Assembly (NCBI RefSeq): GCF_014201375.1
Contig: NZ_JACHDZ010000004.1
Coordinates: 496,001-560,000 of the forward strand
Direction of reading: 5' to 3'
Length of the DNA stretch: 64,000 nucleotides
DNA from: Tunturiibacter empetritectus
GTDB taxonomy: Bacteria > Acidobacteriota > Terriglobia > Terriglobales > Acidobacteriaceae
Shown piece by piece: positions 37,107-40,619 of the stretch. The notes below the pieces were generated by a model. The model was not told the origin of the DNA, did no database searches, and saw only the letters and a list, made by a program, of their open reading frames with translations. Within the stretch, counting starts at the first letter, position 1; each line of letters begins with the position of its first letter. The translations under genes and the position numbers were made by a program.

Positions 37107-37280
37107 CTATCGAGTTCCCATACCACAAGCGTTTGGATCGTTCGGAGCGCACATAGGAACGGGCAGCATGCTGGCGCGGGACGCGGTTACCGCGTTGGTT
37201 TTGGCGGAAGAGGTCTGGGTGGTGGCGGCTGCACCTGTGAGGGCGAGGACGACGACGAAAGCACGAACGATGTGTTTCAT
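37107..37280 (-). CDS. Small secreted peptide, copy 3 of tandem triplet
   Basis: This 57-residue protein is one of three tandem paralogues. It has a signal peptide MKHIVRAFVVVLALTGAAATTQ and a mature part ending with a Cys-framed nine-residue loop CAPNDPNAC and GMGTR. RBS GGAG lies about 9 nt before the ATG. Over the last 21 codons it encodes exactly the same peptide as copy 1 while ten codons differ, all synonymously. The Ala/Thr-rich linker has one residue fewer than in copies 1 and 2. No known family is recognised. Confidence 0.8.
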   Translation of the reverse strand: MKHIVRAFVVVLALTGAAATTQTSSAKTNAVTASRASMLPVPMCAPNDPNACGMGTR

Positions 37281-37347
37281 GACTGGGAACTCCGTGGCCT
37301 TGTAATTTGTTGATTCTGTTGCGGTAACATTGCGAGAGCAACCCTAA

Positions 37348-37524
37348 CTAGCGCGTACCCATCCCACAGGCATTAGGGTCGTTTGGTGCGCACATAGGAA
37401 CCGGCAACATGCTAACGCGGCTGGCAACGACCTTGTTCTTCGCGGAGGCGTTGCTGGTCTGGGTTGTGGCGGCGACACCGGTGATGACGAGGACGACGAC
37501 GAAAGCGCGAACGATATGTTTCAT
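37348..37524 (-). CDS. Small secreted peptide, copy 2 of tandem triplet
   Basis: This 58-residue protein is MKHIVRAFVVVLVITGVAAT at the start, followed by TQTSNASAKNKVVASRVSML, and ends with the shared CAPNDPNAC loop and GMGTR. Its upstream region (GAATCAACAAATTACAAGGCC on the minus strand, then GGAG before the ATG) is nearly identical to that of copy 3, so the duplicated unit includes the ribosome binding site and about 40 nt of upstream sequence. The two cysteines could form an intramolecular disulfide once exported. Confidence 0.8.
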   Translation of the reverse strand: MKHIVRAFVVVLVITGVAATTQTSNASAKNKVVASRVSMLPVPMCAPNDPNACGMGTR

Positions 37525-37592
37525 AATTTGGAACTCCGTGGCCTTGTAATTTGTTGATTCTTTTCAGGGAATACTGCAAAAGCAACCCGAAC

Positions 37593-37769
37593 TTAGCGAG
37601 TACCCATCCCACAGGCATTAGGATCGTTTGGTGCGCACATAGGGACCGGCAGCATGCTGACGCGGCTGGCAGTGATCTTGTTCTTTGCGGAGGCGTTCGA
37701 GGTCTGGGTTGTGGCGACTGCACCGGTGAGGACGAGGACGACGACGAAAGCGCGAACGATATGTTTCAT
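37593..37769 (-). CDS. Small secreted peptide, copy 1 of tandem triplet
   Basis: This is the promoter-proximal copy of the array, 58 residues, with signal peptide MKHIVRAFVVVLVLTGAVAT and mature C-terminus bearing CAPNDPNAC and GMGTR. It differs from copy 2 by a few residues in the signal peptide and linker only. Its upstream region differs from that of copies 2 and 3 and is AT-rich, so the array is probably transcribed from here. Each gene ends about 70 nt before the next starts. Confidence 0.8.
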   Translation of the reverse strand: MKHIVRAFVVVLVLTGAVATTQTSNASAKNKITASRVSMLPVPMCAPNDPNACGMGTR

Positions 37770-38134
37770 AACGAGATACCCCCAAAGTTGTATTTCTGTA
37801 AAAAGATTTCTCTGGACAAACCAGATGATGTAACCATAGGATACAAACTGGACTAAGTCTAATAGAATCAATTGCATATAGAAGTATAAAACATATTTCA
37901 TTACTAAAGTAACTAAACTGCCGTCGCTAATGGGTGATGCTGGCAGACTGACCCTCATATCTGGATCAAATTATGATTGGCAGCAGAGGCCTCTTGTCAC
38001 GGGACGCGACCCACCACAGTCCTGCTCAAAGGAGCCTAATCTATTGCCGGCTCACAGTTAGAGAGTTTCCGATCAATGGGCGGATTGAGGCGCAGGGGTA
38101 GAGTCGATCGACCTAGAGATCGGTAAAAACAATA
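37770..38134. other. Non-coding AT-rich gap upstream of peptide array
   Basis: No gene is seen. The first 150 bases are AT-rich and presumably carry the promoter for the minus-strand peptide genes, but I cannot name a confident -35/-10 pair. The last part leads to the infC terminator. Confidence 0.45.
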
Positions 38135-38872: not shown

Positions 38873-39130
38873 AAGTCGCCTCCACAGCGGATCTTCTCAG
38901 CCGCTATGCGTTGTTTAGGGTTTAGATGCAAATCTCACGAAAGGTTGCACCGCAACGTGAAGTATAACACTTCGCGCACGAAGCCCCTTGGAATCAGTGA
39001 CGAAGAAAGAGCATTATGCTCCTCGCCAGGAGCCTTACCGGGCGATCCATTTTTCGCCATTAGTCCGCCAACTTTGGAATCGGAGGCCCGATCATGTATG
39101 TTTGCACGGAAGCCCTCGGAAAGGAACCGA

Positions 39131-39787
39131 ATGAGACGCCGCATTTTATTGGTCGATGACGAGGTCGCTGTTCTGCTGACCCTGAAGGCTGTGTTGGAGA
39201 TCAGCGGCTTTGACGTGGATACAGCCGCCTCCGCGCGCGAGGGCGTTTCGAAGCTGCATACCCGCGAGTACCAGATGCTGATCACCGATATGCGCATGGA
39301 GCATGATGTCGCCGGTATCGAGGTGATCAAGGCTGCGCGGTCGGCAAACTACCATCCCGCGGTTGCCCTGTTGACAGCCTTCCCGGTCGCCGAAGAGGAT
39401 TGGCAGGAGATGGGCGCGGACCAGCTCCTGGTCAAGCCCATGCACACCCGGATTCTGCTGCAGCAGATTGAAGACCTGATCGCCTCTCACGAGCGAAAGC
39501 TGGCCGGTCTCGGCTTGACGCCAGCCGCGTCGAACCCTGCTGCTAAAGCGACTGGCAAAAAGAAAGCAGTCGTCAAGAAATCGATTGTCAAGAAAGCAGC
39601 CGCGAAGAAAGCGGTCGCGAAGAAGGTTGCAGTTAGAAGCTCGTCGGCCACGAAAACTACTACCGCGAAGACTTCCATCCGAAAGAAGCCCGTCGCCAAG
39701 AAAGCCGTCGTCAAAAAAGCCATTGCGAAGAAGGCGACAAAGGCCTCCGCCAAGCCGAAGCCCGCACGGCGTCGAAAGAACTCCTGA
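39131..39787 (+). CDS. Response regulator with histone-H1-like tail
   Basis: This 218-residue protein starts with a receiver domain (about 1-122): RILLVDDE with Asp9/Asp10, phospho-acceptor Asp53 in MLITDMRM, Thr82 in LLTAF, and Lys102 in LLVKPM. After a short linker it continues with about 80 residues made almost only of Lys, Ala, Val, Thr and Ser in repeats such as KKAVVKK and AKKAVAKK, ending PARRRKNS. This tail resembles the C-terminal domain of histone H1 and bacterial H1-like proteins, so it could bind DNA without sequence preference. The ATG at 39131 has AAGGA upstream. The frame extends far upstream, antisense to infC, which is not coding. Confidence 0.88.
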   Translation: MRRRILLVDDEVAVLLTLKAVLEISGFDVDTAASAREGVSKLHTREYQMLITDMRMEHDVAGIEVIKAARSANYHPAVALLTAFPVAEEDWQEMGADQLLVKPMHTRILLQQIEDLIASHERKLAGLGLTPAASNPAAKATGKKKAVVKKSIVKKAAAKKAVAKKVAVRSSSATKTTTAKTSIRKKPVAKKAVVKKAIAKKATKASAKPKPARRRKNS

Positions 39788-39806: not shown

Positions 39807-40064
39807 CTAGTTTGAGGTGTGTTCTTTGATGTAGCTGCGCAGCGACAGATTGAGCTTCAGTGCTTTTTCCACGCCGCCGTCGAGCATGCGCAGCCAGTCC
39901 GAAGCCGGTTCTTTCAGCTCGGTGGTGCTCAGAAGATAACTCGTCTGGACGATGATCTCGAGCGCATTGCTCAGATCGTGTGCGATTCTGCGCATCTCGA
40001 CTGAGATATCTTCTGGAATCTTTTCGACGTTTGTCCCCTGGGAGAGAGCCTTCGGTTCATTCAT
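39807..40064 (-). CDS. Stand-alone H-box (HisKA-like) protein
   Basis: The 85-residue protein contains MRRIAHDLSNALEIIVQTSYLL, which looks like the phospho-acceptor helix of a histidine kinase (His at about residue 29), followed by a second helix DWLRMLDGGVEKALKLNLSL. That is the length of a DHp hairpin; no ATP-binding domain is present here or next to it. It converges on the response regulator gene with about 20 bp between the stops. The call as a phosphotransfer or DHp-type protein is inference from the helix pattern. Confidence 0.6.
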   Translation of the reverse strand: MNEPKALSQGTNVEKIPEDISVEMRRIAHDLSNALEIIVQTSYLLSTTELKEPASDWLRMLDGGVEKALKLNLSLRSYIKEHTSN

Positions 40065-40311: not shown

Positions 40312-40398
40312 GCCGTAGTGGCGGAATTGGCAGACGCGCATGGTTCAGGTCCATGTACTCGCAAGGGTGTGGGGGTTCGAGTCCCCCCTTCGGCACCA
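40312..40398 (+). tRNA. tRNA-Leu (anticodon CAG)
   Basis: An 87-nt tRNA with a long variable arm (class II). The anticodon loop TTCAGGT carries CAG, T arm GGGGGTTCGAGTCCCCC, CCA encoded. In the acceptor stem GCCGTAG/CTTCGGC the fifth pair is U-U instead of the usual A-U, which is unusual. Its 3' end is duplicated at 45068-45090. Confidence 0.95.
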
Positions 40399-40399
40399 A
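40376..40399 (+). repeat. Direct repeat (attL-like) in tRNA-Leu 3' end
   Basis: TTCGAGTCCCCCCTTCGGCACCAA at the 3' end of tRNA-Leu recurs, with one substitution and one deletion, at 45068-45090. The two copies flank a 4.7-kb segment of accessory genes, as expected for integration at a tRNA gene. Confidence 0.65.
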
Positions 40400-40619
40400 T
40401 ACTATCTTTTTTCAATAGTGAACGGCTTTTACTAGCCGTTTTACTATTTGCTGGCAACTACTGGTTTCGTCTGGCTCACTCACCACGACTTCGGAAGAGA
40501 GCTGAATTTTGCAGGTTCCACCAACGGCAACGGCGTCCCGCTAAAACCCAACACACTACAGCCTCGTAATCGCCATCAGCCGCGCACCGGGCAGCGGCTA
40601 CCAGACAGTCGTCTTCTCG

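What the first reader, a model, noticed from the sequence alone, without database searches (positions are those of the whole stretch)
39131..39787. Receiver domain fused to a histone-H1-like tail
A standard CheY-like receiver (Asp53 phosphorylation site) is followed directly by about 80 residues of Lys/Ala/Val/Ser/Thr repeats such as KKAVVKK and AKKAVAKK. The repetitive basic tail resembles eukaryotic H1 and bacterial H1-like proteins. It offers a simple route for phosphorylation to control nonspecific DNA binding or nucleoid compaction; such a combination is unusual to my knowledge.
Basis: partly seen in the sequence, partly recalled or inferred. Interest (0 to 1): 0.72.

Follow-up and report, generated by a model that had tools for sequence, protein, structure and literature searches.

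The report
Receiver with histone-H1-like tail
A bacterial signalling switch protein in soil Acidobacteriota has grown a long, lysine-rich, histone-H1-like tail, and travels with a small histidine protein that is probably its signalling partner; it may tie a phosphorylation signal to DNA, which has still to be tested.

Summary
Window 39131-39787 (+) encodes a 218-aa protein: a complete CheY-like receiver (PF00072, E 4e-17; Asp53) followed by a 100-residue tail with 27 Lys, 6 Arg, 23 Ala and one acidic residue, in KKxxx pentads. The receiver is extremely conserved among close relatives (dN/dS 0-0.02). The tail drifts faster (0.2-0.5 where computable) but keeps its lysines. Receiver orthologues occur in 167 of 250 sampled genomes of the GTDB family. 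Of 90 examined, 57 lack an H1-like tail. Tails have median 80.5 aa and net +28 in 36 loci of four genera, against 34 aa and net +5 in 54 loci of other genera. The long tail is therefore a lineage-specific expansion, unlikely to be the receiver's ancestral output. It co-occurs with the receiver (both 148, receiver only 19, DHp only 29, neither 54 of 250). Best reading: a single-domain response regulator served by a stand-alone DHp protein, with an expanded tail that probably anchors it to nucleic acid. DNA binding, phosphorylation control and nucleoid compaction are untested. New variant of a known kind.

The parts
39131..39484 (+). CheY-like receiver domain (residues 1-118); phosphoacceptor Asp53 codon 39287-39289
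   Evidence: PF00072 E 4.3e-17; active-site residues in 89-90 of 90 orthologues; dN/dS 0-0.02 among close relatives
39485..39784 (+). 100-residue Lys/Ala-rich, near acid-free, H1-like tail; probably disordered
   Evidence: composition; HC2 sub-threshold match; pLDDT under 50 for residues 129-210 in a low-confidence model
39557..39625 (+). first block of KKxxx pentads (15-bp units)
39683..39733 (+). second block of KKxxx pentads
39785..39787 (+). stop codon of the receiver-tail gene
39807..40064 (-). convergent gene for an 85-aa free-standing DHp-like protein (HDLSN H-box, candidate phosphoacceptor His29 at 39978-39980), no ATPase domain; likely partner
   Evidence: family-wide orthologues, co-occurrence, profile-profile match to HisKA segments, helical hairpin model
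39120..39125 (+). AAAGGA, ribosome-binding-site-like, 5 nt before the ATG
   Evidence: sequence

Best explanation
This is a single-domain response regulator of a family-specific orthologous group. A stand-alone DHp-type histidine protein, in this genus encoded next door, passes phosphate to its Asp53 or removes it. In the lineage of this genus and its close relatives, the regulator's short basic C-terminus expanded into an 80-100-residue H1-like polycation that most likely holds the protein on nucleic acid, probably the nucleoid. The receiver would then be concentrated on DNA, and phosphorylation or DHp binding would change how the bound protein interacts with itself or with partners. Shown: the two-part architecture, the conservation pattern, the lineage-specific growth of the tail, the co-occurrence and local adjacency of the DHp gene, and its homology to HisKA DHp domains. 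Inferred: that the two proteins interact, that the tail binds DNA, and that phosphorylation controls anything.
For: Receiver with full active site. Orthologues in 167 of 250 family genomes at E<=1e-20 and in 27 of 297 of the phylum sample at E<=1e-17, 25 of them in the same family. Tail median 80.5 aa, net +28 in 36 loci of g1/g32/g64/g21; 34 aa, net +5 in 54 loci of other genera. Lys is the best-kept abundant tail residue between the window and six relatives (120 of 139; Ala 85 of 124, Ser 12 of 42), while tail dN/dS is 0.2-0.5 in the 11 of 21 pairs where dS could be computed. KK-to-KK spacing of 5 makes up 37% of 240 intervals in 33 H1-like tails, against 7% after shuffling. DHp protein in 177 of 250 family genomes; both genes in 148, receiver only 19, DHp only 29, neither 54. 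DHp gene within the fetched flank (about 1-1.7 kb) in 12 of 12 g1 and 8 of 12 g32 loci. H[DE][LI][SGN]N in 45 of 45 DHp proteins. hhalign of the DHp family against 22 HisKA segments of the same genome: probability 96%, E 4e-9, His in register; the best of 40 column-shuffled controls had probability 3%, E 0.015. Among the helices alpha1 is the least variable (mean entropy 0.60) and alpha4 the most (2.14); the beta5-alpha5 loop is also low, 0.60 (element borders set by me). Alpha1 and the active-site loops are the usual DHp-docking face (recalled). Precedents: lysine-repeat tails that bind DNA, are needed for nucleoid association or stabilise a DNA complex (PMC9239181 passages; PMC5676037 abstract; PMC7398561 passages), and a phosphotransferase working with a single-domain regulator (PMC5898713 abstract).
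Against: No binding or phosphotransfer data. Two of 12 loci in the window's own genus have short tails (42 aa net +12, 30 aa net +4), so the long tail is dispensable in some lineages. The DHp gene is not within the fetched flank in any of 11 g64 loci, which have long tails, nor in 55 loci of other genera; 19 genomes have the receiver without a detected DHp and 29 the reverse. Co-occurrence was not corrected for phylogeny or for incomplete genomes. The DHp protein of the window has no Pfam match; the only weak matches among its seven aligned relatives are to unrelated families (PRODH 0.08, MAPEG 0.16). Its fold search is unspecific.
Confidence: 0.5

Rival explanations
1. Phospho-switched nucleoid protein: phosphorylation of Asp53 changes receiver dimerisation or masks the tail, so the protein compacts or releases DNA as an H1-like architectural factor.
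For: H1-like composition and pentads; intact phospho-site; DNA-binding precedents (PMC9239181 passages, PMC5676037 abstract).
Against: 57 of 90 orthologues examined lack the H1-like tail. Helix alpha4, part of the usual output and dimerisation face (recalled), is the most variable element of the receiver, which argues against a conserved phospho-dependent dimer. No data on abundance.
Confidence: 0.2
2. The tail binds RNA, ribosomes, polyphosphate or another anionic surface rather than DNA, placing the receiver there.
For: A polycation need not prefer DNA; AlgP, with a similar tail, also associates with polyphosphate granules (PMC9239181 passages). infC lies beside the gene in 35 of 90 loci.
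Against: infC adjacency looks like ordinary synteny and is also seen in 10 of 55 loci of other genera, most of them with short tails. No RNA-binding motif was looked for.
Confidence: 0.17
3. The long tail is a nearly neutral expansion of a 15-bp lysine-coding repeat and adds little; the functional unit is the receiver plus the DHp protein.
For: Tandem 15-bp units, length varying from 30 to 130 aa within the four long-tailed genera, dN/dS in the tail an order of magnitude above the receiver's.
Against: Lys is kept more than Ala, Ser, Thr or Val. Net charge in the four genera stays high (median +28, range 4-40) although the tails have diverged widely in sequence. Both Lys codons and all four Ala codons are used.
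Confidence: 0.13

Closest known systems
Single-domain response regulators (CheY, Spo0F, CpdR, SdrG types)
   Same: Stand-alone receiver with full active site; the best-scoring NCBIfam model is CpdR (52.5 bits, far below its cut-off of 180).
   Different: Carries a long H1-like tail; in the samples searched it is confined to one acidobacterial family apart from two weaker relatives.
AlgP and PhaF of Pseudomonas
   Same: N-terminal domain plus long disordered Lys/Ala repeat tail; an AlgP tail fragment and KPAA peptides bind DNA (PMC9239181 passages).
   Different: The N-terminal part of AlgP is described as helical, not a receiver; the tail is KPAA-based.
Chlamydia Hc2 and Bordetella-type H1-like proteins
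   Same: Lysine-rich pentamers (PMC2848022 abstract); weak HC2 profile match here.
   Different: No receiver (recalled); the HC2 match is below Pfam's cut-off and probably rests on composition.
HupB, and TopA of Actinobacteria, with lysine-repeat tails
   Same: A globular part with an H1-like C-terminal tail that strengthens DNA association (PMC5676037 abstract; PMC7398561 passages).
   Different: Their globular part itself acts on DNA; here it is a signalling domain.
ChpT, Spo0B and PhyT (DHp-based phosphotransferases)
   Same: Histidine phosphotransferase working with a single-domain regulator (PhyT: PMC5898713 abstract; ChpT and Spo0B recalled).
   Different: Those carry a degenerate ATPase-like domain or further parts (recalled); the protein here is only 85 aa, modelled as a bare helical hairpin.

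Membership tests
CheY-like receiver (PF00072) | Profile match above gathering score | tested here: met
   62.7 bits against 30.2
CheY-like receiver (PF00072) | Acidic pair, phospho-Asp, Thr/Ser and Lys of the active site | tested here: met
   D9, D10, D53 in 90 of 90; T82 and K102 in 89 of 90
CheY-like receiver (PF00072) | Is phosphorylated | not testable with these tools
   needs biochemistry
H1-like protein HC2 (PF07382) | Profile match above gathering score | tested here: not met
   31.6 bits against cut-off 40, residues 132-215
H1-like lysine-repeat tail (descriptive class) | Lys/Ala-rich, nearly acid-free, repeated KK motifs | tested here: met
   27 K, 23 A, 1 acidic of 100; pentads
H1-like lysine-repeat tail (descriptive class) | Intrinsically disordered | tested here: inconclusive
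   pLDDT under 50 over residues 129-210, but the whole model is weak (mean 50.4)
Nucleoid-associated protein | Binds DNA and is part of the nucleoid | not testable with these tools
   inference from composition and precedents only
HisKA-type DHp (neighbour, 39807-40064) | Sequence homology to HisKA DHp with phosphoacceptor His in register | tested here: met
   hhalign probability 96%, E 4e-9 against 22 HisKA segments, H aligned to H; shuffled controls at most 3%. An 8-row profile also met one other place in the genome, a sensor kinase over its HEINN motif, at E 0.03
HisKA-type DHp (neighbour, 39807-40064) | HisKA profile match by single sequence | tested here: not met
   no HisKA hit for the window protein or seven relatives; PF00512 search of the genome did not list it at E<=0.001
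HisKA-type DHp (neighbour, 39807-40064) | Two-helix hairpin fold like solved DHp domains | tested here: inconclusive
   model is a helical hairpin, pLDDT 77.8, but structure matches are unspecific hairpins; ChpT appears only at E 3.1
Sensor histidine kinase (neighbour) | HATPase catalytic domain in the same protein | tested here: not met
   85-aa ORF with no family match

The most novel reading that the evidence does not exclude
A dedicated His-Asp module for the nucleoid: a kinase-less, stand-alone DHp protein sets the phosphorylation state of a receiver that is itself a nucleoid-bound, H1-tailed architectural protein, so that two-component signalling acts directly on chromosome packing without a sequence-specific DNA-binding domain.
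Probability: 0.2. Interest if true: 0.78.

Novelty: new variant of a known kind. Interest (0 to 1): 0.52.

Why it matters
Two-component signalling normally reaches DNA through sequence-specific output domains. A receiver joined only to an H1-like polycation would be a different and simple route from phosphorylation to the nucleoid. Tail length varies naturally among orthologues with near-identical receivers, so it can be tested by swapping tails. The widespread stand-alone DHp protein also gives a handle on a signalling pair in Acidobacteriota that none of the papers listed appears to describe (listings only).

Tried and rejected
Chance or wrong-frame artefact: rejected. The reading frame is constrained (receiver dN/dS near zero) and orthologues share the architecture. 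The antisense 88-aa ORF over the tail (39487-39753) is the mirror of the repeats and was not pursued.

'The H1 tail is the family's output domain': rejected, since 57 of 90 orthologues examined lack it. On a receiver tree the label clusters but needs 6 changes (at least 5 forced); 118 columns for 92 rows resolve poorly.

H1-like tails as something special to this gene: not so. A KKAxKKA pattern met five places in the genome, and three of them lie in Lys/Ala-repeat open frames (L118, L122, L123; one other was a transporter, one showed no such frame). PF00216 (HU) has three places in the genome; their tails were not examined.

The three of these seven printed (L051, L052, L054) look like sigma-54-type regulators without such tails; the other four were not examined. 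This does not exclude the combination elsewhere. Two class-level relatives (L176, L177) have only short ends.

Structure: the receiver-tail model was poor (mean pLDDT 50) and was not used for fold search. Fold search of the DHp model gave only unspecific helical hairpins; ChpT was rank 30 at E 3.1. A PDB sequence search gave only two chance-level matches. A promoter scan found none.

Literature: all ten searches are. I judged listings and starts of abstracts; the lists showed 20 of 174, 10 of 16 and 12 of 174 papers. Opened: PMC9239181 and PMC7398561 (passages), PMC2848022, PMC5898713 and PMC5676037 (outline with abstract). The library lacks most subscription papers.

Limits of counts: tail statistics cover 90 of the 167 positive genomes (30 best-scoring plus 60 chosen down the list for genus spread), so the 'other genera' group is not a random sample and the H1-like share is probably inflated. 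The 45 DHp proteins were found by similarity to the window's, which favours the motif; 7 loci (L038-L043, L050) were dropped as duplicates before that count. In one search, 10 of 21 pairs had no computable tail dS.

Full report
WHAT IS THERE. Window 39131-39787 (+) encodes 218 residues from an ATG preceded by AAAGGA. Residues 5-113 are a receiver (PF00072, E 4.3e-17) with the acidic pair, Asp53, Thr82 and Lys102. These hold in 89-90 of 90 orthologues aligned. Residues 119-218 contain 27 Lys, 6 Arg, 23 Ala and one acidic residue. In the other long open frames picked from the window Lys is 3.5%, and no 100-residue stretch of them holds more than 14 (frames picked by length, not checked for coding). 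The KK pairs sit five residues apart in two blocks, visible as 15-bp units in the DNA. In 33 H1-like tails of orthologues, 37% of 240 KK-to-KK intervals are 5, against 7% after shuffling. The HC2 profile matches weakly, below its cut-off. AlphaFold gives low confidence over residues 129-210, as expected for disorder, but the whole model is weak.

DISTRIBUTION. With the whole protein as query, 167 of 250 genomes sampled from the same GTDB family have an orthologue at E<=1e-20. With the receiver alone, 27 of 297 genomes sampled across the phylum do at E<=1e-17: 25 in the same family and two weaker ones in another family of the class. Named relatives are Granulicella, Edaphobacter, Terriglobus and further Acidobacteriaceae/Acidobacteriales records. 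In these samples it is an orthologous group of a single family. The closest paralogues listed in the genome are 35% identical or less.

THE TAIL IS A LINEAGE-SPECIFIC GROWTH. I extracted 90 orthologues, one per genome, from the 167 positive genomes and measured the part after residue 118. In 36 loci of genera g1 (the window's), g32, g64 and g21 the tail has median 80.5 aa (30-130) and median net charge +28 (4-40). In 54 loci of other genera it has median 34 aa (6-77) and net +5 (1-19). With 'H1-like' set at 50 aa or more and net +15 or more, 33 of 90 qualify. Exceptions exist both ways: two g1 members have 42 and 30 aa, two g32 members have long but weakly charged tails (net +10, +11), and one g66 member has 77 aa with net +19. 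A receiver tree clusters the label but needs 6 changes (at least 5 forced by well-supported branches), with the caution that 118 columns resolve poorly. Among seven close relatives the receiver is nearly frozen (dN/dS 0-0.02, with dS up to 2.3). The tail evolves at dN/dS 0.2-0.5 in the 11 of 21 pairs where dS could be computed. Against the window, Lys is kept in 120 of 139 aligned positions, Ala in 85 of 124, Ser in 12 of 42. This is the pattern of a disordered segment selected for charge rather than exact sequence. A contribution from repeat slippage is likely.

THE NEIGHBOUR. Nineteen bases beyond the stop, convergent, lies an 85-aa ORF (39807-40064, -). It has no Pfam or NCBIfam match. Among seven aligned relatives only chance-level matches to unrelated families appeared. 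Orthologues are in 177 of 250 family genomes at E<=1e-4. All 45 extracted carry H[DE][LI][SGN]N (these were found by similarity, and 7 duplicate loci were dropped). An 8-row profile's only other hit in the genome at E<=10, at E 0.03, falls on the DHp region of a PAS sensor kinase, over its HEINN motif. I then compared a 45-member profile with 22 HisKA segments of the same genome. hhalign gave probability 96% and E 4e-9 with the histidines aligned; 40 column-shuffled controls reached at most 3% and E 0.015. The model is a helical hairpin; structure searches are unspecific, as for any hairpin. I conclude that it is a stand-alone DHp-type protein without an ATPase domain. Both genes are present in 148 of the 250 genomes, receiver only in 19, DHp only in 29, neither in 54 (Fisher P 5e-18, not corrected for phylogeny or for incomplete genomes). 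In the phylum sample 25 genomes have both, 2 only the receiver and 3 only the DHp. The DHp gene lies within the fetched flank of about 1-1.7 kb in 12 of 12 g1 and 8 of 12 g32 loci, but in 0 of 11 g64 and 0 of 55 other loci. Outside g1 and g32, then, the link rests on co-occurrence alone. infC lies beside the receiver in 35 of 90 loci, which I read as plain synteny.

HOW IT PROBABLY WORKS. Across the 90 aligned receivers the core strands and active-site positions are nearly fixed. Among the helices, alpha1 is the least variable (mean entropy 0.60; L15, L16, T17, L22, E23 in 97-100%), and the beta5-alpha5 loop is equally low. Alpha4 is the most variable (2.14); alpha2, alpha3 and alpha5 lie at 1.4-1.6 (element borders set by me). 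From established knowledge of receiver-DHp complexes (recalled), alpha1 and the active-site loops dock on a DHp, whereas alpha4-beta5-alpha5 is the usual output and dimerisation face. The selected contact is therefore probably with a histidine protein, and the stand-alone DHp is the obvious candidate. It could act as phosphotransferase or phosphatase; PhyT and SdrG in Sphingomonas are a precedent for a phosphotransferase paired with a single-domain regulator (PMC5898713, abstract). The tail most likely adds a nucleic-acid anchor. In AlgP a tail fragment and KPAA peptides bind DNA (PMC9239181, passages). In HupB the H1-like tail is needed for nucleoid association (PMC5676037, abstract). In actinobacterial TopA, lysine repeats stabilise the complex with DNA (PMC7398561, passages). 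Hc2 varies by lysine-rich pentamers (PMC2848022, abstract). None of this shows that the present tail binds DNA, nor that phosphate changes it.

VERDICT. The proposed phospho-controlled nucleoid compaction is possible but not shown, and it is unlikely to be the ancestral function because 57 of 90 orthologues examined lack the long tail. The finding is best described as a new variant: a single-domain response regulator, paired with a stand-alone DHp protein, that grew an H1-like tail. None of the papers listed by my searches (some lists capped) is about a receiver with such a tail; the library holds open-licence papers only.

Noticed in passing
window 37107-37838 (-): Three tandem copies of about 245 bp, each encoding a small protein of about 57-58 aa (the third inside a longer frame) that ends in the same 20 residues, MLPVPMCAPNDPNACGMGTR, with two Cys; the start looks like a signal peptide by eye. 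Possibly a locally amplified secreted peptide.
   Followed up: no
L123 (own genome, contig C4 near 8.2 kb): A 299-aa open frame with an acidic first half and a long KKA-repeat H1-like second half; further KKA-repeat open frames in L118 and L122.
   Followed up: partly
window 39807-40064 (-): Stand-alone DHp-like protein family, in 177 of 250 sampled genomes of the GTDB family and without a Pfam or NCBIfam match for the window's member.
   Followed up: yes
L002 and L003 (own genome): Two paralogous proteins (275 aa from the receiver on) in which the receiver is followed by a shared C-terminal region that I did not identify; they are the nearest paralogues of the receiver studied here.
   Followed up: no
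window 40312-40398 (+): tRNA-Leu (cag) just beyond the DHp gene; the 83-aa ORF listed at 40318-40569 overlaps it and is probably spurious.
   Followed up: partly
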